Assembly: GCF_014644555.1 (NCBI RefSeq)
Contig: NZ_BMKX01000008.1
Span: 1 to 64,000 of the forward strand
Source: Glutamicibacter ardleyensis
GTDB taxonomy: Bacteria; Actinomycetota; Actinomycetes; Actinomycetales; Micrococcaceae
DNA length: 64,000 nt
Direction: 5' to 3'
A program made the translations under genes and the position numbers. Every line of letters begins with the position of its first letter. Position 1 is the first letter of the stretch. Below the pieces are notes generated by a model. It saw only the letters and a list, made by a program, of their open reading frames with translations. It did no database searches and was not told the DNA's origin. Of the stretch, positions 1 to 11,242 are shown piece by piece.

Positions 1-453
1 CTCCAAGACGAGTGCAGCCACAGCGATCCCTCTGATGAGTCTGACTGGGACTCCAGTTCCGAAGGTGTCGGGTACGGCAAAGGTTGGTTCCACGCTGAAA
101 GCAAACGCGGGAACGTGGAAGCCTGCAACGGTGACCTTGAAGTATCAGTGGAAGCGTGACGGCAAGACGATCACTGGTGCTACTAAGACCAGCTACAAGC
201 TTGTAGCAGCCGACGCAGGGAAGAAAATCACGGTCACCATCACCGGTTCGAAGAGCGGTTACAAGTCGGTCTCCAAGACGAGTGCAGCCACAGCGATCCC
301 TCTGATGAGTCTGACTGGGACTCCAGTTCCGAAGGTGTCGGGTACGGCAAAGGTTGGTTCCACGCTGAAAGCAAACGCGGGAACGTGGAAGCCTGCAACG
401 GTGACCTTGAAGTATCAGTGGAAGCGTGACGGCAAGACGATCACTGGTGCTAC
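1..453 (+). repeat. 270-bp direct repeat encoding Ig-like modules
   Basis: Bases 1-183 are identical to 271-453 (period 270 bp), then diverge sharply at base 184/454. The array begins before the window. Perfect nucleotide identity between neighbouring modules suggests recent duplication or gene conversion. Confidence 0.93.
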
Positions 454-574
454 AAAGACTTCTTACAAGTTAGCTAAGTCCGATAAAGGCAGAAAAGTCA
501 CTGTAACTACCACCGGTTCTAAGAGTGGTTACAAGTCGGTCTCGAAGACCAGTTTAGCGAAGCTCATAAAGTAA
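2..574 (+). CDS. C-terminal part of an Ig-like repeat surface protein (partial)
   Basis: The reading frame is open from the first base of the window, so only the last ~190 residues are seen. They consist of two ~90-residue repeats, each with the pattern VSGTAKVGSTLKANAGTW, then YQWKRDGKTITGAT and SYKL, and ending in GSKSGYKSVSKTS. This is the Ig-like/bacterial adhesin module commonly found in tandem at the C-terminus of secreted actinobacterial enzymes and cell-wall proteins. It is lysine-rich and ends in KLIK with no LPXTG signal or membrane anchor. The function of the N-terminal part cannot be judged. A terminator-like hairpin follows the stop. Confidence 0.8.
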   Translation, partial: SKTSAATAIPLMSLTGTPVPKVSGTAKVGSTLKANAGTWKPATVTLKYQWKRDGKTITGATKTSYKLVAADAGKKITVTITGSKSGYKSVSKTSAATAIPLMSLTGTPVPKVSGTAKVGSTLKANAGTWKPATVTLKYQWKRDGKTITGATKTSYKLAKSDKGRKVTVTTTGSKSGYKSVSKTSLAKLIK

Positions 575-4053: not shown

Positions 4054-4084
4054 TTGATGTACGACGAAAGTGGGAAAATCAAAG

Positions 4085-5587
4085 ATGAGTAATCCGATTC
4101 CGGTCAGCGAAGAAACTTTCGCGCAGGCTGGCAAGGTTCTTGCAGTTCACCTGAGCTACTCCTCGCGGGCAGCACAGCGCGGACGCACTCCTAAATTCCC
4201 GAGCTACTTCATGAAGGCTTCCAGCTCACTGGCCACCACCGGCTCAACCGTGGAACGCCCAGCTGGTACTGAACTGCTCGCCTTCGAAGGCGAAATCGCA
4301 TTGATCATCGGCAAAGCTGCCCGCCGCGTTTCGGTAGAAGAAGCCTGGAGCTACGTCGGCTCGGTCACCGCCTCCAATGACTTGGGTGTCCATGACATCA
4401 AGTACGCGGACAAGGGATCAAACATCCGCTCGAAGTCAGGCGACGGCTACACCCCGATGGGCCCTACCGCCCTGGCGGCAGCCGATCTGGATCCGGCCAA
4501 GCTGCGCGTGCAGACCTGGGTCAACGGCAAAATTGTGCAGGATGCAGATACCTCTGAGCTGCTCTTCTCCTTCGCGCAGATCGTTGCAGATCTTTCCCAG
4601 CAGATGACCCTGGAGCCAGGGGACGTCATCCTCACCGGCACCCCGGCAGGTTCTTCCGTGTTCTTCCCGGGCGACGTCGTCGAAGTTGAGGTCACCGACC
4701 TGCTTTCCGGTGCCACCACCGGGCGTTTGAAGACCACCGCGGTCGAAGGCACTTCCACCTTCGCGTCCTTCGGCAACCAGCCAAAGGTCACCGACAAGGA
4801 CAAGGAAGATGCCTACGGCGACCGCGAAACCGCCGGCATGCCGGCACTGGTCACCGGCAAGTCGGTACTCACCGACGAGGTCCGCGAACAGCTCGCTGGC
4901 GTAGCTACCGCCACCTTGTCAGCCACCTTGCGCAAGCGCGGCCTGAACAACGTGAATATCGAAGTTCCTGGCGCCACCAAGGGCATGAAGCGCGTGATCG
5001 GCACCGCCCGCACGCTGCGCTACATCCCGAACCGCGAAGATCTGTTCAAGGCTCACGGAGCGGGCTACAACATCCAGAAGCAGTCAATTGACTCTTTGAA
5101 TGACGGAGAAATCCTGGTCATGGAAGCCCGCGGGGAAACCGGCTCGGCTACCCTGGGCGACATCTTGGCACTGCGCAGCCAGCAGCTGGGTGCCGCCGGC
5201 ATCATCTCCGATGGTGGCGTGCGTGACCTTGACGCCGTCTCCGGCCTGGAGATCCCGGTCTTCTACAACGGCGCGCACCCGGCAGTTCTGGGACGCAAGC
5301 ACGTGGCCTGGGACAAGGACATCACCGTGGCTTGCGGCGGCGTCTCCGTCCAGCCGGGCGACGTCATCGTGGCGGACTCCGATGGCATCGTGGTGATCCC
5401 ACCGGCTATGGTCGCCGAGGTCGCCGCGGAAGCAATGGTCACCGAATCCAACGACGAATTCATCTTCGCCATGGTCCAGCGCGGTCACGGCATCGAGGGC
5501 TTGTTCCCGATGAACGCCGACTGGAAAACCAAGTACACCGCCTGGAAGGACGCCGGATCCCCGGATCTGGCCACCTGGGAACTGTAA
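4085..5587 (+). CDS. FAH-family isomerase fused to an RraA/HMG-aldolase-like domain
   Basis: 500 residues. Residues ~15-230 are a fumarylacetoacetate hydrolase-fold domain with metal ligands E68, E70 and D99, plus K110 and TGTPAG. In this pathway that domain is the 5-carboxymethyl-2-hydroxymuconate isomerase (HpcE/HpaG type). Residues ~255-475 are an RraA-like domain that keeps the aldolase/decarboxylase residues D359, R380 and D381 (GDILALRS, GGVRDLD). Enterobacterial HpaG has two FAH domains instead. The RraA half could therefore be the decarboxylase, or the class II aldolase cleaving 2,4-dihydroxyhept-2-ene-1,7-dioate. Start ATG 4085 is preferred over GTG 4070. It overlaps the next gene by 1 bp. 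Confidence 0.82.
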   Translation: MSNPIPVSEETFAQAGKVLAVHLSYSSRAAQRGRTPKFPSYFMKASSSLATTGSTVERPAGTELLAFEGEIALIIGKAARRVSVEEAWSYVGSVTASNDLGVHDIKYADKGSNIRSKSGDGYTPMGPTALAAADLDPAKLRVQTWVNGKIVQDADTSELLFSFAQIVADLSQQMTLEPGDVILTGTPAGSSVFFPGDVVEVEVTDLLSGATTGRLKTTAVEGTSTFASFGNQPKVTDKDKEDAYGDRETAGMPALVTGKSVLTDEVREQLAGVATATLSATLRKRGLNNVNIEVPGATKGMKRVIGTARTLRYIPNREDLFKAHGAGYNIQKQSIDSLNDGEILVMEARGETGSATLGDILALRSQQLGAAGIISDGGVRDLDAVSGLEIPVFYNGAHPAVLGRKHVAWDKDITVACGGVSVQPGDVIVADSDGIVVIPPAMVAEVAAEAMVTESNDEFIFAMVQRGHGIEGLFPMNADWKTKYTAWKDAGSPDLATWEL

Positions 5588-6246
5588 TGACTAACTCCAA
5601 ATCCGAGGTCGCCTACGCGCTGGTCTCCGAACGCATCGTCAACGGGGCGTATTCCCCCGGATACCGACTCGTTCTGGGCACCATCGCCGAGGAACTGGGC
5701 TGCTCGGTGGTCCCGGTGCGCGAGGCGATCCGGCGTTTGGAAGCCGAAGGTCTGGTGCACTTCACCCGCAATGTGGGAGCCACCGTGGCACAGGTAGATT
5801 CAACCCTCTACCTGCACACCATGCAGACCCTTGCGGTCATCGAACCGGCGGCCACCGCCCTCGCGGCCTCCGCCATGGACGAGACTTGGCTGGCCAAGGC
5901 GCAGGCATTGAACGATGCGATGCGCCAGTGCTTGGAGGACTTTGACCCGGTGGCCTTCACCGAGTTGAACAACGAGTTCCACCAGCAGCTCTACAGCCAG
6001 TGCCCTAACCCGCACATCCTGGATCTGGTCCAGCGCGGATGGCGCCGGCTCGCAGCAATGCGGGCCAGCTCCTTCACCCACATCCCGCACCGTGCCAAGC
6101 AGTCGGTGGAAGAGCACCAGCACCTACTGGAACTGATCGCCGCCCACGCCTCGACGAAAGACATCGAAGAGGCCGCCCGGACACACCGAACCAACACGCT
6201 CAACGCCTACCTGGCCCAGGCCAATATGGCACCCAGCGCCATCTAG
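5587..6246 (+). CDS. GntR-family repressor of the homoprotocatechuate operon
   Basis: 219 residues. The N-terminal winged helix has the classic pattern ERIVNGAYSPGYRLVLGTIAEELG followed by VPVREAIRRLEAEGLV. The C-terminal all-helical ligand domain is FadR/FCD type, with the metal-site pattern ELNNEFHQQLY and HRAKQSVEEHQHLLELI. The ATG overlaps the stop of the fusion gene (TAATG), so translation is coupled. The palindrome at 4042-4053 is the likely target; a pathway intermediate such as homoprotocatechuate is the likely inducer, by inference from context. Confidence 0.88.
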   Translation: MTNSKSEVAYALVSERIVNGAYSPGYRLVLGTIAEELGCSVVPVREAIRRLEAEGLVHFTRNVGATVAQVDSTLYLHTMQTLAVIEPAATALAASAMDETWLAKAQALNDAMRQCLEDFDPVAFTELNNEFHQQLYSQCPNPHILDLVQRGWRRLAAMRASSFTHIPHRAKQSVEEHQHLLELIAAHASTKDIEEAARTHRTNTLNAYLAQANMAPSAI

Positions 6247-6259
6247 ACCCCACAAATTT

Positions 6260-6289
6260 TCATCATTTGATGACTTTCATTGCTGAAAG
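6260..6289 (+). promoter_or_regulatory. Two adjacent inverted repeats between the GntR gene and hpaE
   Basis: TCATCA-TT-TGATGA at 6260-6273 is followed directly by CTTTCA-TTGC-TGAAAG at 6274-6289. They fill the 64-bp gap ahead of the hpaE ribosome binding site and could be a second operator or mutually stacked hairpins tuning downstream expression. Confidence 0.4.
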
Positions 6290-6310
6290 CCACGCGAAAG
6301 GAAAACATCC

Positions 6311-7798
6311 ATGAGCAACGTTCCGGAGAATCTCCCCACCCACCTGCAGCACTACATCGATGGCAAGTTCGTCGATTCCATCTCGGGTAAAACCTTCGAT
6401 GTGCAGGAACCGGTCAAGAACGAAAACTACGCCACCGTAGCTTCGGCTCAGCCCGAAGACGTGGACCTGGCAGTAGCCGCCGCCAACAAGGCCTTCAAGG
6501 AAGGCCCATGGTCCAAGATGTTGCCGCGTGAGCGTTCCCGCGTGCTGCACAAGATCGCCGACATCGTTGAATCCCGCGACGAAGAGCTGGCACTGCTGGA
6601 GTCCTTCGACTCCGGCCTGCCCATCACCCAGGCCAAGGGCCAGGCACGCCGCGCAGCGGAGAACTTCCGCTTCTTCGCCGACCTGATCGTTGCCCAGGTG
6701 GATAACACCTTCCGTGTTCCAGGTCGCCAGATGAACTACGTGAACCGCAAGCCAATTGGCGTCGCCGCACTGATCACCCCTTGGAACGTTCCGTTCATGC
6801 AGGAATCATGGAAGCTAGCTCCGGCCATCGCTACCGGCAACTCGGTCGTACTCAAGCCTGCCAGCTACACCCCGCTGTCGGCGGTACTGTGGCCAGAAAT
6901 CTTCCGCGAAGCAGGACTGCCAGAGGGCGTCTTCAACCTGGTCTTCGGCTCGGGCGGAGTGGCCGGCGACTACCTGGTCAAGCACCCGGACGTGCCACTG
7001 GTGTCCTTCACCGGTGACAGCTCCACCGGCGCCACCATCTCCACCGCGGCGGCCCCACAGTTCAAGGGCTTGTCCCTGGAACTGGGTGGCAAGTCCCCAG
7101 CCATCGTCTTCGCAGACGCCGACCTAGACGCAGCACTGGATGCCACCGTCTTCGGTGTGTTCTCGCTGAACGGTGAGCGTTGCACCGCCGGCTCCCGCGT
7201 GCTGGTTCAGCGCGAAATCTATGATGATTTTGTTGCTAAGTTTGCGCAGCGCGCCAAGAACATCCGCGTTGGCCTGCCAAGCGATCCAAAGACCGAGGTC
7301 GGCTCGCTGGTTCACCCGAACCACTTCGACAAGGTCATGAGCTACATCGAAATCGGCAAGAAGGAAGGCCGTTTGCTCGCCGGTGGCGGACGCGCAGAAG
7401 GCTTCGAGACGGGCAACTACGTTGCTCCGACCGTCTTCGCCGATGTTGCTCCAGAGGCACAGATCTTCCAGGACGAAATCTTCGGCCCAGTCGTAGCGAT
7501 CACCCCGTTCGACACCGATGAAGAAGCGCTGGAACTGGCCAACAACACCAAGTACGGCCTAGCCGCTTACGTGTGGACCACCAACCTGAAGCGTGCGCAC
7601 AACTTCGCACACGCCATCGATTCGGGCATGGTCTGGCTGAACTCAAACAACGTCCGTGACCTGCGCACCCCATTCGGTGGCGTGAAGGCTTCGGGTCTGG
7701 GCCGCGAGGGAGGCTACCGCTCGGTGGACTTCTACACCACCCAGCAGTCGATTCAGATCACCCTGAACGAGTCCCACTCCCCTAAGTTCGGCGTCTAA
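6311..7798 (+). CDS. hpaE: 5-carboxymethyl-2-hydroxymuconate semialdehyde dehydrogenase
   Basis: A 495-residue NAD(P)+-dependent aldehyde dehydrogenase. It has the cofactor motif ITPWNVPFMQ, general base E257 in LELGGKSP, and nucleophile C291 in NGERCTAGSR. The context (extradiol dioxygenase of the homoprotocatechuate type directly downstream, FAH isomerase upstream) assigns the semialdehyde formed by ring cleavage as substrate. The start has an AAAGG ribosome binding site. Length matches HpaE/HpcC. General aldehyde dehydrogenase activity cannot be excluded from sequence alone. Confidence 0.9.
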   Translation: MSNVPENLPTHLQHYIDGKFVDSISGKTFDVQEPVKNENYATVASAQPEDVDLAVAAANKAFKEGPWSKMLPRERSRVLHKIADIVESRDEELALLESFDSGLPITQAKGQARRAAENFRFFADLIVAQVDNTFRVPGRQMNYVNRKPIGVAALITPWNVPFMQESWKLAPAIATGNSVVLKPASYTPLSAVLWPEIFREAGLPEGVFNLVFGSGGVAGDYLVKHPDVPLVSFTGDSSTGATISTAAAPQFKGLSLELGGKSPAIVFADADLDAALDATVFGVFSLNGERCTAGSRVLVQREIYDDFVAKFAQRAKNIRVGLPSDPKTEVGSLVHPNHFDKVMSYIEIGKKEGRLLAGGGRAEGFETGNYVAPTVFADVAPEAQIFQDEIFGPVVAITPFDTDEEALELANNTKYGLAAYVWTTNLKRAHNFAHAIDSGMVWLNSNNVRDLRTPFGGVKASGLGREGGYRSVDFYTTQQSIQITLNESHSPKFGV

Positions 7799-7832
7799 CC
7801 CACCTTCTCGCTTTTGCAAAGGAGCAAACACC

Positions 7833-8942
7833 ATGGCTAAAGAAATCAATAACCCAATCCCTACCCCATCGGTTCCAGCGCCGGATATCCTGCGCTGCGC
7901 CTACGCGGAACTGGTCGTCACCGACCTGGCCGCATCGCGCAAGTTCTACGTAGACGTTCTGGGTCTGCACGTCTCCTACGAGGATGACACCCAGATCTAC
8001 CTGCGTTCCTTCGAAGAGTTCATCCACCACAACCTGGTCCTGACTCTCGGCCCGGTAGCAGCACTGAAGGCTATGGCTTTCCGTGTGCGCTCCACCGCCG
8101 AGGTAGACGCCGCTGAGGCGTACTACAAGGAATTGGGTTGCCGCACCGAGCGCCGCGCCGAGGGCTTTGTCCGCGGAATCGGCGATTCGGTCCGCGTGGA
8201 AGATCCACTGGGCTTCCCCTACGAGTTCTTCTTCGAGACCGAGCACGTAGAACGCCTGCACATGCGCTACGACCTCTACTCGGCTGGCGAATTGGTCCGT
8301 CTGGACCACTTCAACCAGGTCACCCCGGACGTGCCACGCGGCCGCGCTTACCTCGAGGACCTGGGCTTCCGCGTCACCGAAGACATCCAGGACGAAGAAG
8401 GCACCACCTACGCAGCATGGATGCACCGCAAGGGCACCGTACACGACACCGCGCTCACCGGTGGCAACGGTCCACGCCTGCACCACGTAGCCTTCTCCAC
8501 CCACGAGAAGCACAACATCATCCAGATCTGCGACAAGATGGGCGCACTGCGCATCTCGGACCGCATCGAGCGCGGCCCAGGCCGCCACGGTGTCTCCAAC
8601 GCGTTCTACCTGTACATCCTGGATCCAGATGACCACCGCATCGAGATCTACACCCAGGATTACTACACCGGCGACCCGGACAACCCGGTCATCACCTGGG
8701 ACGTGCACGACAACCAGCGCCGCGACTGGTGGGGCAACCCAGTTGTTCCATCGTGGTACACCGAAGCCTCGAAGGTCCTTGACCTGGACGGCAACGTGCA
8801 GGAAGTCATCACCCGCACCGACAGCTCCGAAATGGATGTCACCGTCGGCGCCGACGGCTTCTCCTACACCCGTGAGAAGGACGAAGACGGCACCTACCGC
8901 GGCGAGCCTTCCAAGGGCTTCAAGCTCGGCAACCAGGTCTAG
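7833..8942 (+). CDS. hpaD: Homoprotocatechuate (3,4-dihydroxyphenylacetate) 2,3-dioxygenase
   Basis: A 369-residue extradiol dioxygenase of the vicinal oxygen chelate superfamily, built from two betaalphabetabetabeta repeats. The metal ligands are H159 (RLDHFNQ), H218 (RLHHVAF) and E271 (HRIEIY). H204 matches the second-sphere acid/base His200 of Brevibacterium HPCD, with a uniform +4 offset. Overall it resembles the Mn-dependent MndD of Arthrobacter globiformis and the Fe enzyme of Brevibacterium fuscum, which share ligands, so the metal cannot be called from sequence. A strong AAGGAG precedes the ATG. A terminator follows. Confidence 0.95.
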   Translation: MAKEINNPIPTPSVPAPDILRCAYAELVVTDLAASRKFYVDVLGLHVSYEDDTQIYLRSFEEFIHHNLVLTLGPVAALKAMAFRVRSTAEVDAAEAYYKELGCRTERRAEGFVRGIGDSVRVEDPLGFPYEFFFETEHVERLHMRYDLYSAGELVRLDHFNQVTPDVPRGRAYLEDLGFRVTEDIQDEEGTTYAAWMHRKGTVHDTALTGGNGPRLHHVAFSTHEKHNIIQICDKMGALRISDRIERGPGRHGVSNAFYLYILDPDDHRIEIYTQDYYTGDPDNPVITWDVHDNQRRDWWGNPVVPSWYTEASKVLDLDGNVQEVITRTDSSEMDVTVGADGFSYTREKDEDGTYRGEPSKGFKLGNQV

Positions 8943-8982
8943 GACCTCGCCGAGGCAGCTTCCCTGAGCTGCTACGTGAAGA

Positions 8983-9022
8983 TCCCGGGTCACCAGCGAT
9001 TGAATTCGCTGGTGACCCGGGA
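8983..9022 (+). terminator. Rho-independent terminator of the homoprotocatechuate operon
   Basis: A perfect 17-bp stem (8983-8999 with 9006-9022), a 6-nt loop, then a short T-run (TTTT). Confidence 0.88.
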
Positions 9023-9046
9023 ATTTTGGCCTTCAAGCATGATTAA

Positions 9047-9300
9047 TTAGCGGCGCACCGGGTAACGCAGGTGGAGCGCCGGGCCGCCAACCTCGCCGGC
9101 GGAGACCTTGACACTGCGTTCACCGGCGGGTTGCTGCGCCTTGGCCAGGATACCGCGGCAGAGTGGACGAAGTGGAATGGCGCCTCGGGGTCCCAGCCCT
9201 TAGGTCTTGGCAGGTCGTTTTCATCCGCGATGAAGCCGTCCACCGACACCGAGCCGTATATGGCAACCTTGCTCAAAGGATCCTTCAAAGTGCGGTTCAT
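9047..9300 (-). pseudogene. Remnant of a RibD/dihydrofolate reductase-like gene
   Basis: The reading frame from 9300 begins KVAIYGSVSVDGFIADENDLP, the typical N-terminus of RibD C-terminal-domain (DHFR-like) proteins. It then loses similarity. A second frame ending at the stop at 9047 reads LAKAQQPAGERSVKVSAGEV, which resembles the family's middle region (alanine-rich helix then a GDRDV-like strand). The intervening and C-terminal parts are missing. This fits a deletion plus frameshift in a once full-length gene, not a functional short protein. Confidence 0.7.
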
Positions 9301-9588
9301 TACCGAACGAGTGGAAAATACCTAAACAAACTTCAACAGTGCGGCGAGAGATGCCCGGGTTCAGGATTGCGAACTAACCGCTGGAACGGTCCGAAATGTT
9401 TCCGGTCATTGCGCACGTTGAATTCCGATTCCTTCCCTCTCCCACGCCCGCTCTTCGATTCGCTCGTAGCTCCTAGGATTCCCGCTCCCGAAGCACGATA
9501 GCCATTTCATAGACCCCCGCAAGTTGCCCTCTCCAAACATCACACCCGAGCTGGCAACGAAGGCGCAGTCCTACCGGCCAAAACACCC
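9301..9588. other. Intergenic region with no recognised gene
   Basis: About 290 bp between the RibD-like remnant and the ABC-F promoter. Nothing convincing was seen on either strand. Confidence 0.5.
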
Positions 9589-9594
9589 TAGAAT
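9589..9594 (+). promoter_or_regulatory. -10 element (TAGAAT) of the ABC-F gene
   Basis: Ends 7 nt before the ATG at 9602, so the transcript is predicted to start at or next to the A of the start codon (leaderless). Confidence 0.55.
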
Positions 9595-9601
9595 TGAGAC
9601 C

Positions 9602-11242
9602 ATGACTGCAACGCTGGTGGCCAAGGACCTTTCCGGGGGCCATGCCGATCGAACCCTCTTCTCCAAACTCAGCTTCACCCTTTCTCCGGGGGATGTGTAT
9701 GGAATCGTAGGTGCCAACGGCGCTGGAAAAACCACGTTGCTTCGCCTGCTCGCAGGCGTTGACGAACCCATGGGCGGCACCGTCTCCACCGCACCCGATG
9801 GGGCATTCATCGGCTGGATGCCGCAGGAACACGACCGCATTGAAGGCGAAACTATCGCCGAGTATCTAGCCCGCCGCACCGGATGCGCGCAGGCCACAGC
9901 CACCATGGAAGCGACCGCCGAGGCACTGGGCTCCGGGGCTTCCGGAGCAGATGACGCCTACGCCTTGGCCTTTGACCATTGGATGGCCTCGGGCGCCATG
10001 GACTTGGATGACCGCGCGCCGGAGGTCCTGGCGGAACTTGGCTTTGAGCTTCCCACCGACTCGTTGATGACCTCTTTGTCCGGCGGACAGGTAGCGCGTA
10101 TCGCGCTGGCCGCTCTGCTGCTGAGCCGTTTTGATGTCGTCCTGCTTGATGAGCCGACGAATGACCTCGATTTGGCCGGGTTGGAACGACTGGAAACCTT
10201 TATCAATTCACTGCGCGCCGGCGTGGTGCTGGTATCCCACGACCGTGAATTCTTGGCTCGCTGCACTACCGGGATTGTGGAGCTGGATCTGGCGCAGAAC
10301 CAAGTCGCGGTTTACGAAGGAGGCTATGATTCGTATCTTGAAGAACGGGACATCAACCGTCGTCATGCACGCGAAGCCTATGACGAATTCGCGGACAAAA
10401 AAGCAGATCTTGTCTCCCGTGCCCGCACCCAGCGTGAATGGTCTTCCCAAGGCGTTCGCAATGCCATGAAGAAGAACCCGGATAATGACAAGCTGCGCCG
10501 CAAGGCGTCCAATGAGTCCTCGGAAAAGCAGGCACAGAAGGTCCGCCAGATGGAGTCACGGATTAAACGGCTCGATGAGGTCATCGAGCCTCGTAAGGAA
10601 TGGGTGCTGCAATTTGAAATTGCGGCGGCCCCGCGTTCTTCCACCGTGGTTTCCACACTCAATGAGGTGGCCCTGAACCGTGGACATTTCAGCTTCGGTC
10701 CCCTGTCAATCCAGTTGAACGCCGCAGAGCGCATCGGCATCACCGGTCCCAACGGATCCGGAAAATCGACGTTGCTCAACTTGTTGCTGGGCAAAATCAC
10801 CCCTGATTCGGGAAGCGCCTCGCTGGGTGCCTCGGTGAAGATTGGTGAAATCGATCAGGCGCGCAGCTACTTGCCCGCCGGGCTTCCTCTGGGAGAAGCA
10901 TTTGAGCTCGAATTGCCGGAAATGACTTCGGCGGACGCTCGGACTTTGCTCGCAAAATTCGGCCTGAAAGCCAACCAGGCTGCTTCACTGGTCTCTGCGC
11001 TCTCCCCCGGGGAACGCACCCGTGCTGGTCTGGCTCTTTTGCAAGCCCGTGGTGTGAACCTGTTGGTCCTCGATGAGCCAACCAACCACCTGGACCTACC
11101 AGCAATTGAGCAACTTGAAGAAGCTTTGGAATCCTATGAGGGTGCCTTGCTGCTCGTCACACACGACCGGCGGATGCTTGAAAATGTGCGCCTTGACGCA
11201 CGCTGGGAAATAACAGACGGCCAGTTGACAGTACGGCACTAA
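9602..11242 (+). CDS. ABC-F family ATPase
   Basis: 546 residues with two ABC domains and no membrane segments. Domain 1 has GANGAGKTT, LSGGQ and VVLLDEPTNDLD. The linker is highly charged (EKQAQKVRQMESRIKRLDEV). Domain 2 has GPNGSGKST, LSPGE and LLVLDEPTNHLD. This is the architecture of ABC-F ribosome-acting factors (EttA/Uup/antibiotic-resistance proteins). Without a specific P-site tip comparison, it cannot be placed as housekeeping or resistance type. The start at 9602 is preferred over upstream in-frame codons because of the -10 element at 9589-9594. Confidence 0.9.
   Translation: MTATLVAKDLSGGHADRTLFSKLSFTLSPGDVYGIVGANGAGKTTLLRLLAGVDEPMGGTVSTAPDGAFIGWMPQEHDRIEGETIAEYLARRTGCAQATATMEATAEALGSGASGADDAYALAFDHWMASGAMDLDDRAPEVLAELGFELPTDSLMTSLSGGQVARIALAALLLSRFDVVLLDEPTNDLDLAGLERLETFINSLRAGVVLVSHDREFLARCTTGIVELDLAQNQVAVYEGGYDSYLEERDINRRHAREAYDEFADKKADLVSRARTQREWSSQGVRNAMKKNPDNDKLRRKASNESSEKQAQKVRQMESRIKRLDEVIEPRKEWVLQFEIAAAPRSSTVVSTLNEVALNRGHFSFGPLSIQLNAAERIGITGPNGSGKSTLLNLLLGKITPDSGSASLGASVKIGEIDQARSYLPAGLPLGEAFELELPEMTSADARTLLAKFGLKANQAASLVSALSPGERTRAGLALLQARGVNLLVLDEPTNHLDLPAIEQLEEALESYEGALLLVTHDRRMLENVRLDARWEITDGQLTVRH

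What the first reader, a model, noticed from the sequence alone, without database searches (positions are those of the whole stretch)
4085..5587. FAH isomerase fused to an RraA/HMG-aldolase-like domain in a homoprotocatechuate operon
Seen: one 500-aa ORF with FAH metal ligands (E68, E70, D99) and an RraA-type site (D359, R380, D381), followed by GntR, HpaE-type and HpaD-type genes. Known: enterobacterial HpaG/HpcE duplicates the FAH domain (isomerase and decarboxylase), while HMG/CHA aldolases are RraA-fold enzymes. Inference: the RraA half replaces either the decarboxylase or the HpaI aldolase, so two consecutive pathway steps sit on one chain.
Basis: partly seen in the sequence, partly recalled or inferred. 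Interest (0 to 1): 0.65.

Follow-up and report, generated by a model that had tools for sequence, protein, structure and literature searches.

The report
Fused enzyme in aromatic-acid breakdown operon
A soil actinobacterium joins two unrelated enzyme folds in one protein that appears to do the middle steps of breaking down the aromatic acid homoprotocatechuate, steps for which other bacteria use different proteins; the join is already known to databases, but which half does what is untested.

Summary
In detail: one 500-aa ORF (4085-5587, +) carries an FAH domain and an RraA-like domain with intact sites, followed by GntR, HpaE and HpaD. The architecture is not new to databases: NCBIfam NF009399 (PRK12764) is a full-length, function-less model of it. 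It is an actinobacterial homoprotocatechuate component: 33 of 393 class genomes carry it over cut-off, and 34 have HpaD over cut-off, the same 33 plus one decayed-looking locus.

The aldolase idea fails on gene content. The window's genome has hpaH-hpaI on another contig, and 33 of 33 fusion genomes have an HpaI-like gene (26) or a DapA-type one (8; one has both), all under the strict model cut-offs. No HpaG N-lobe reaches cut-off (0 of 34 genomes and 2 plasmids); HpaF appears in 1 of 33 fusion genomes, not at the operon.

So the fusion is the only operon candidate for what HpaG, and perhaps HpaF, do elsewhere. Its FAH half keeps the metal glutamates of the decarboxylase lobe, absent from six of six isomerase lobes examined, so 'FAH isomerase' is doubtful. 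Best guess: FAH = OPET decarboxylase (plus HHDD isomerization), RraA = tautomerase standing in for HpaF. RraA as HHDD isomerase or decarboxylase stays open. Nothing was assayed.

The parts
4085..5587 (+). FAH-RraA fusion gene, 500 aa (alternative GTG start at 4070)
   Evidence: NCBIfam NF009399 774.6 bits over cut-off 444
4151..4702 (+). FAH (FAA_hydrolase) domain; metal triad E68, E70, D99; conserved N113, R115 (K in one row), K117, D120, T123
4703..4906 (+). Interdomain stretch, variable in length among relatives (lower model confidence, residues 221-260)
   Evidence: A1 alignment; model confidence
4907..5395 (+). RraA-like domain; D359, R380, D381 site; E454 lies just beyond the Pfam match
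5587..6246 (+). GntR/FCD-family regulator, start codon overlapping the fusion's stop (TAATG)
6311..7798 (+). [quoted passage not shown]
   Evidence: TIGR02299 over cut-off
7833..8942 (+). hpaD, VOC-type 3,4-dihydroxyphenylacetate 2,3-dioxygenase
   Evidence: TIGR02295 over cut-off

Best explanation
The protein is the actinobacterial stand-in for HpaG, and probably for HpaF, in homoprotocatechuate meta-cleavage. It takes 5-carboxymethyl-2-hydroxymuconate (CHM, made by HpaD and HpaE) to 2-oxohept-3-ene-1,7-dioate (OHED, used by HpaH and HpaI). Most likely the FAH half, with a divalent metal on E68/E70/D99, does the OPET decarboxylation and the following HHDD isomerization, as single FAH proteins seem to do in Deinococcus, Rhizobium and Ruegeria operons. 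The RraA half, with a metal and pyruvyl-enolate site on D359/R380/D381 (and E454), most likely acts as a 2-hydroxydienoate tautomerase replacing the missing CHM Delta-isomerase HpaF. Shown: architecture, intact sites, near-perfect association with HpaD, presence of dedicated aldolase-type genes, absence of HpaG N-lobe and near-absence of HpaF by model searches. Inferred: every catalytic assignment. My confidence that the fusion serves the CHM-to-OHED segment and is not the aldolase is about 0.85; the number below is for the full assignment of the halves.
For: Association: fusion over cut-off in 33 of 393 genomes; HpaD over cut-off in 34 of 393, the same 33 plus G300, whose locus shows only partial HpaD and HpaE matches. 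Gene order: 24 of 33 genomes have GntR, HpaE, HpaD, HpaH and HpaI with the fusion; among 81 loci (80 named relatives plus the window) 43 show all seven core matches and 6 a DapA-type gene instead of HpaH/HpaI. Aldolase accounted for. Hydratase: the same 26 genomes with HpaI have HpaH at 297 bits or more. HpaG-N over cut-off in 0 of 36 genomes or records, while the model finds true N lobes (E. coli 472.3, Pseudomonas 291.4, cut-off 228.65). CHMI: none in the own genome, 1 of 33 fusion genomes and not at the operon; the model gives the E. coli protein 169 bits. Subtraction: of 11 non-actinobacterial hpa loci that I chose and read, 9 have CHMI annotated; Deinococcus L192 has a complete-looking operon with one FAH, an HpaG-C type over cut-off (342.8 vs 276.4), plus CHMI. 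FAH half has the decarboxylase-lobe triad and the model superposes on residues 217-427 of HpcE 1i7o, its C-terminal lobe (Z 23.3). RraA-fold chemistry includes enolate proton exchange and oxaloacetate decarboxylation (PMC5065237, passages).
Against: CHM is reported to isomerize spontaneously, and decarboxylation can proceed without CHMI (PMC12718150, passages), so a missing HpaF needs no replacement. In that paper (Acinetobacter) efficient decarboxylation required a complex of two different FAH proteins, which argues against one FAH lobe doing everything. The C. aurimucosum paper assigns hpaF to a gene outside its hpa cluster (cauri_0890; PMC2830990), so a separate HpaF may exist where I found none. 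14 of the 33 fusion genomes have a PF01361 tautomerase somewhere, none near the fusion and none in the window's genome. G187 has a CHMI match over cut-off (39.9 vs 26.5 bits). The single-FAH operons may use a second FAH from elsewhere (Rhizobium L199 has one about 2.3 kb beyond hpaI), and the Rhizobium and Ruegeria FAH are below the HpaG-C cut-off (159.0 and 163.1 vs 276.4), as is the fusion (147.2). Vitreoscilla L198 and D. aetherius L201 show no annotated CHMI in the stretch. Known RraA-fold activities are aldol cleavage, decarboxylation and dehydration; I know of no isomerase. In the tree the fusion FAH falls inside neither HpaG lobe's clade, so the triad is shared chemistry, not proof of orthology.
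Confidence: 0.42

Rival explanations
1. FAH half is the OPET decarboxylase and the RraA half replaces the HpaG N-lobe as HHDD isomerase; CHM tautomerizes on its own or through an unrelated enzyme.
For: FAH half has the decarboxylase-lobe triad, and HpaG-N over cut-off is absent (control). In Acinetobacter OPETD needs its HHDDI partner, and CHM can isomerize spontaneously (PMC12718150, passages).
Against: Some hpa operons outside Actinomycetes show only one FAH beside CHMI, so a separate HHDD isomerase may be dispensable. It leaves the loss of HpaF unexplained except by spontaneity.
Confidence: 0.22
2. FAH half is the HHDD isomerase and the RraA half is the OPET decarboxylase.
For: RraA-fold decarboxylases exist: the oxaloacetate decarboxylase activity of HMG/CHA aldolase (PMC5065237, passages) and FlDet dehydratase/decarboxylase (PMC8563752, passages). 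OPET is a vinylogous beta-keto acid (general knowledge).
Against: The HpaG isomerase lobes lack the two metal glutamates (0 of 6 have them) that the fusion's FAH half keeps in 51 of 51 rows; decarboxylase lobes have them (6 of 6).
Confidence: 0.2
3. The RraA half keeps a non-catalytic or regulatory role (oligomer scaffold, or RNase E-type regulation).
For: The closest solved relative is RraAS2, titled an RNase ES inhibitor family member (5x15, Z 26.1, rmsd 1.6).
Against: D359, R380, D381 and E454 are identical in 51 of 51 rows; the RNase-regulator equivalogs are far below cut-off (58.6 vs 136 and 33.4 vs 241.25 bits); stand-alone relatives lie in apparent sugar-acid clusters.
Confidence: 0.1
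4. The RraA half is the 4-hydroxy-2-oxoheptanedioate aldolase in place of HpaI.
For: HMG/CHA aldolase is an RraA-fold pyruvate aldolase (PMC5065237, passages). None of the HpaI-like or DapA-type genes reaches its strict model cut-off.
Against: 33 of 33 fusion genomes have an HpaI-like or DapA-type gene, in 24 and 8 of them at the fusion locus; the window's genome has hpaH-hpaI.
Confidence: 0.03

Closest known systems
NCBIfam NF009399 / PRK12764 'fumarylacetoacetate hydrolase family protein'
   Same: Full-length FAH-RraA model; the window protein scores 774.6 bits over model positions 14-497 of 501
   Different: The model names no substrate or pathway; no paper in the searched library holds the term PRK12764
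HpaG / HpcE (E. coli, bifunctional OPET decarboxylase/HHDD isomerase; 1gtt, 1i7o)
   Same: Same place in the pathway operon; two fused enzyme domains; FAH half matches the metal-bearing C lobe best
   Different: HpaG is FAH-FAH; here the partner domain is RraA, and the triad-bearing FAH domain comes first. In the tree the fusion FAH is in neither lobe's clade
HMG/CHA aldolase (3noj; RraA fold)
   Same: Fold (Z 20.4, rmsd 3.4) and the Arg-Asp of the active site
   Different: Far below the LigK/CHA aldolase cut-offs (74.2 vs 304.5, 78.1 vs 179 bits); these genomes have their own aldolase-type genes
FlDet, RraA-family dehydratase/decarboxylase of the alginate DEHU pathway (PMC8563752, passages)
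   Same: RraA-family catabolic enzyme acting on a 2-keto acid; reported 26% identical to the S. coelicolor RNase E inhibitor cited as RraAS2
   Different: Stand-alone, different substrate; I did not compare its sequence with the window
hpaGLEDHI-gabD2 cluster of Corynebacterium aurimucosum (PMC2830990, passages)
   Same: Gene content matches the fusion operons, with hpaF outside the cluster (cauri_0890)
   Different: The paper describes hpaG as OPET decarboxylase; the passages I saw mention no RraA domain. That this hpaG is the fusion is my inference

Membership tests
NF009399 (PRK12764) FAH-RraA fusion | Score over curated cut-off along the full length | tested here: met
   774.6 vs 444 bits, model positions 14-497 of 501
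HpaG bifunctional isomerase/decarboxylase | Two FAH lobes; NF011750 and TIGR02303/02305 cut-offs | tested here: not met
   130.7 vs 811; 147.2 vs 276.4; 107.2 vs 228.65 bits; only one FAH domain. Control: E. coli HpaG 977.6, 475.0, 472.3 bits
HpaG bifunctional isomerase/decarboxylase | Metal triad E-x-E...D of the decarboxylase lobe | tested here: met
   E68, E70, D99 in 51 of 51 rows; triad in 6 of 6 C lobes, both glutamates absent in 6 of 6 N lobes
HpaG bifunctional isomerase/decarboxylase | OPET decarboxylase and HHDD isomerase activity | not testable with these tools
   needs purified protein
HMG/CHA aldolase (LigK type) | Score over NF006731 or TIGR02798 cut-off | tested here: not met
   78.1 vs 179 and 74.2 vs 304.5 bits
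HMG/CHA aldolase (LigK type) | Asp-X20-Arg-Asp metal/enolate site (motif recalled; roles of Arg-123, Asp-124, Glu-199 from PMC5065237 passages) | tested here: met
   D359-X20-R380-D381 and E454 in 51 of 51 rows; pairing of E454 with Glu-199 is inferred from position only
RraA (RNase E regulator) | Score over RraA equivalog cut-offs | tested here: not met
   58.6 vs 136, 33.4 vs 241.25 bits
PRK08245 RraA-like subfamily (NF006093) | Score over cut-off | tested here: met
   226.5 vs 208 bits, residues 261-490
HpaI aldolase | HpcH/HpaI family (PF03328) or DapA-type TIGR02313 | tested here: not met
   No such match in the fusion at E <= 0.001
HpaF CHM Delta-isomerase | CHMI family PF02962 | tested here: not met
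   No match in the fusion at E <= 0.001; functional equivalence is untested

The most novel reading that the evidence does not exclude
The RraA half is the first RraA-fold isomerase: a metal-dependent 2-hydroxydienoate tautomerase that replaces HpaF (and perhaps HpaG's isomerase lobe), so that one polypeptide of two unrelated metalloenzyme folds carries three consecutive steps, CHM to OPET to HHDD to OHED.
Probability: 0.35. Interest if true: 0.6.

Novelty: new variant of a known kind. Interest (0 to 1): 0.42.

Why it matters
It would settle how Gram-positive soil and cheese bacteria finish tyrosine/4-hydroxyphenylacetate breakdown without hpaG and hpaF, give a function to a nameless database family (PRK12764), correct annotations such as 'Dimethylmenaquinone methyltransferase' or 'ribonuclease activity regulator' for RraA-like catabolic enzymes, and, if the tautomerase reading holds, add a new reaction type to the RraA fold.

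Tried and rejected
Aldolase replacement: rejected on gene content. HMM preference of the FAH half for the HpaG C lobe (147 vs 107 bits) as evidence for decarboxylase: dropped, because three other FAH proteins of the same genome, outside this operon, also prefer the C-lobe model (152 vs 87, 165 vs 102 and 188 vs 121 bits). Orthology of the fusion FAH to either HpaG lobe: not supported by the tree (long branches N_Sphing, own_L013a, own_L013b). Split FAH and RraA genes side by side in an hpa operon: none noticed in the loci read, but I made no systematic search for them. Stand-alone RraA neighbourhoods (and where genes were judged by eye from ORF starts) point to sugar-acid catabolism but name no reaction. 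Literature: FAH + RraA + fusion 0 papers, PRK12764 0; searches gave no paper describing the fusion's function in the listings and passages I saw. Subscription journals are mostly outside the library.

Rows dropped or partial: A1 has 22 rows, the window plus 21 of the 36 fetched fusion loci (33 loci from the other 32 fusion genomes, 3 from plasmids); L066, L076, L077, L081 and L082, whose coordinates my script missed, and others were left out. A3 has 30 of 81 loci. In one search the row L083 was read in a wrong frame and is ignored. The G187 CHMI match was not followed further. The PF02962 and TIGR02305 genome searches had no control over cut-off among the 14 control genomes, and the E. coli record offered as control was not searched; protein-level controls are.

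Full report
What is there. The window lies in a 3.94-Mb, 28-contig actinobacterial genome (G000, contig C8). The closest named relatives returned for this protein are from Arthrobacter sp. MYb229 (96% identity) and Glutamicibacter nicotianae (90%) (records very near the window's own may be left out there). The ORF at 4085-5587 encodes 500 residues with an FAH domain and an RraA-like domain. Its stop codon overlaps the start of a GntR-family regulator gene (TAATG), and hpaE and hpaD follow on the same strand, both over their curated cut-offs. A model built from 30 fusions (mean pLDDT 82.8, pTM 0.52, residues 101-120 and 221-260 weak) superposes on FAH enzymes over residues 2-227 and on RraA-fold proteins over about 256-480: RraAS2 5x15 Z 26.1, HMG/CHA aldolase 3noj Z 20.4, HpcE 1i7o Z 23.3 on its residues 217-427.

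Known or not. The whole architecture is an existing NCBIfam model, NF009399/PRK12764, without a stated function (774.6 bits, cut-off 444). So the fusion as such is catalogued; its role is what is open. The RraA half also passes the cut-off of the PRK08245 subfamily (226.5 vs 208 bits), but not those of RraA proper or of the CHA aldolases.

Association with the pathway. In 393 genomes drawn from the class, 33 have the fusion over cut-off and 34 have HpaD over cut-off: the same 33 plus G300. The G300 locus contains only partial HpaD and HpaE matches among other genes, so it looks like a remnant. In 24 of the 33 genomes the fusion, GntR, HpaE and HpaD are accompanied by HpaH and HpaI within the stretch fetched, 20 kb in all but one. 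In 81 loci (80 named plus the window), 81 have both halves, 79 GntR, 78 HpaE, 74 HpaD, 47 HpaH, 45 HpaI and 6 a DapA-type gene, several loci being cut by contig ends. The plasmids of Paenarthrobacter aurescens TC1 and Rhodococcus sp. NBC_00297 show the same cluster (HpaD of TC1). Arthrobacter sp. Rue61a grows on 4-hydroxyphenylacetate, homoprotocatechuate and tyrosine, with a meta pathway proposed (PMC3534580, passages); A. arilaitensis uses tyrosine as carbon source (PMC2991359, passages).

The aldolase idea fails. The window's genome carries hpaH (358 bits, cut-off 351.5) and an HpaI-like gene (328 bits, cut-off 368.8, HpaI being the best family) side by side on contig C2 at about 88.3-89.8 kb. 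Across the 33 fusion genomes, 26 have HpaI at E <= 1e-60 and 8 have a TIGR02313 'HpaI-NOT-DapA'-like gene at E <= 1e-85, in all 8 at the fusion locus; G212 has both. That covers 33 of 33. None of these is over its strict curated cut-off, so the names rest on best family and position. The 26 with HpaI are the 26 with HpaH at 297 bits or more; the 7 with only the DapA-type gene have no HpaH match above 223.0 bits. A DapA-type hydratase-aldolase that replaces both HpaH and HpaI would explain this (inference; such enzymes are recalled from naphthalene pathways).

What is missing. HpaG's N lobe over cut-off: 0 of 36 genomes or records. The 14 control genomes gave none over cut-off either, but the model scores the E. 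coli N lobe at 472.3 and a Pseudomonas HpaG2 at 291.4 bits against a cut-off of 228.65. CHMI/HpaF (PF02962): none in the window's genome, one match (39.9 bits, cut-off 26.5, G187, on another contig than either fusion copy) in 33 fusion genomes, and none in G300 or the two plasmids; no control genome rang, and the E. coli record was not held there, but the model scores the E. coli HpaF at 169 bits. 4-OT-type tautomerases (PF01361) occur in 14 of 33 fusion genomes, none within 20 kb of the fusion and none in the window's genome. So CHM to OPET, OPET to HHDD and HHDD to OHED have the fusion as their only operon candidate.

Which half does what. The literature assigns HpcE's C lobe, with a metal-coordinating acidic triad, as decarboxylase and the N lobe as isomerase, on structural grounds. 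In Acinetobacter the two lobes are separate proteins that must pair for efficient decarboxylation, CHMI speeds it up, and CHM can isomerize spontaneously (PMC12718150, abstract and passages). In my alignment the triad is present in 6 of 6 C lobes; both glutamates are absent in 6 of 6 N lobes, which keep Asp or Glu at the third place; the fusion keeps the triad in 12 of 12 rows there and 51 of 51 overall. N113, R115 and T123 are together in all 6 C lobes and all 12 fusions of that alignment and in none of the other 11 non-N FAH proteins. The tree, however, puts the fusion FAH halves as one clade (100/99) beside a Streptomyces canus stand-alone FAH (100/98), outside both lobe clades. Thus the FAH half is a metal-type FAH enzyme of its own lineage, more like the decarboxylase lobe than the isomerase lobe in its site.

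Subtraction. I read 11 non-actinobacterial hpa loci of my choosing: two with an FAH-FAH fusion (E. coli, Erwinia), four with two FAH genes (Pseudomonas, Azotobacter, Sphingobium, Vitreoscilla) and five with one FAH in or by the operon (three Deinococcus, Rhizobium, Ruegeria). CHMI is annotated in 9 of 11 stretches; Vitreoscilla has a weak match elsewhere on its plasmid and D. aetherius none annotated. The Deinococcus L192 FAH is an HpaG-C type over cut-off (342.8 vs 276.4), while those of Rhizobium and Ruegeria are not (159.0, 163.1). On plasmids the numbers of records with HpaD and CHMI are alike in several genera (Rhizobium 35 and 36, Ensifer 9 and 9, Sinorhizobium 6 and 6, Aminobacter 6 and 6, Agrobacterium 5 and 5; Deinococcus 15 and 8), though I did not intersect the lists. 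If one FAH suffices with CHMI there, then what the actinobacterial operon lacks is CHMI and what it has extra is RraA. Hence my preferred reading, RraA in place of HpaF. It is an argument by elimination, weakened by spontaneous CHM tautomerization and by the chance of further FAH genes elsewhere in those genomes.

Chemistry. RraA-fold HMG/CHA aldolase stabilises a pyruvate enolate with Arg-123 next to a Mg2+ held by Asp-124 and Glu-199, exchanges pyruvate methyl protons (2 per second, 604 with phosphate) and decarboxylates oxaloacetate (PMC5065237, passages); FlDet is an RraA-family dehydratase/decarboxylase (PMC8563752, passages). Either enol-keto transfer or decarboxylation is therefore within reach. 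R380, D381 and E454 are the same in 11 of 11 stand-alone relatives compared; D359 in 7 of 11. The fusions have their own constant H398 and R404, absent from all 11, and K332, which is Arg in 7 of 11. Such residues could bind the extra carboxylates of CHM/OPET (inference; not placed on the model).

Prior print. The C. aurimucosum genome paper names a cluster hpaGLEDHI with gabD2, HpaG as OPET decarboxylase, and places hpaF elsewhere in the genome as cauri_0890 (PMC2830990, passages). The gene content matches the fusion operons, so its hpaG is probably this fusion (inference, not checked); its separate hpaF speaks against my HpaF reading if that gene is real. In my searches I saw no report of an FAH-RraA fusion or its activity.

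Verdict. Observation confirmed; interpretation partly supported; a known but functionally unassigned fusion family that most likely replaces HpaG and perhaps HpaF. Novelty is a new variant of a known kind, of moderate interest.

Noticed in passing
L055, L057, L059, L066, L068, L077-L080 (and 6 named loci: L140, L162, L165, L168, L169, L172): A TIGR02313-like DapA-family gene sits at the fusion locus where HpaH and HpaI are missing; 7 of 33 fusion genomes have it as their only aldolase candidate, suggesting a hydratase-aldolase in place of both.
   Followed up: partly
L149 (Galactobacter caseinivorans) and L148 (Galactobacter MAG): The fusion is accompanied by HpaH and HpaI with no HpaE or HpaD match in the stretch held (L148 is only 3.8 kb).
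   Followed up: no
L174 (Streptomyces canus plasmid), 4203-9711: A stand-alone FAH, sister to the fusion's FAH half in the tree, lies with a dioxygenase annotated as HpaD-type, an aldehyde dehydrogenase and an acetoacetate decarboxylase-family gene: another uncharacterised ring-cleavage cluster.
   Followed up: partly
L175-L179, L182-L187: Stand-alone relatives of the RraA half (annotated 'ribonuclease activity regulator RraA' in L175-L179) lie beside SDR or NAD(P)-dependent oxidoreductases in 4 of those 5; in some of L182-L187 aldo-keto-reductase-like, DapA-like or transport genes were judged by eye. They look like sugar-acid catabolic enzymes rather than RNase regulators.
   Followed up: partly
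L192, L193, L199, L200: hpa operons of Deinococcus, Rhizobium and Ruegeria show a single FAH gene with CHMI, unlike the paired FAH of Pseudomonas or E. coli (Rhizobium L199 has another FAH about 2.3 kb past hpaI).
   Followed up: partly
G187 (L077, L078): One 11-Mb genome has two copies of the fusion locus and the only CHMI match among the 33 fusion genomes.
   Followed up: no
window 35-574: A short ORF made of two near-identical repeats of about 90 residues, probably the end of a larger repeat protein cut by the contig edge.
   Followed up: no
L014 5876-9351 (own genome, contig C1): A second, unassigned ring-cleavage cluster with an HpaD-like dioxygenase (106.6 bits, cut-off 321.4), an FAH protein and a gene that looks like a monooxygenase by eye.
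   Followed up: no
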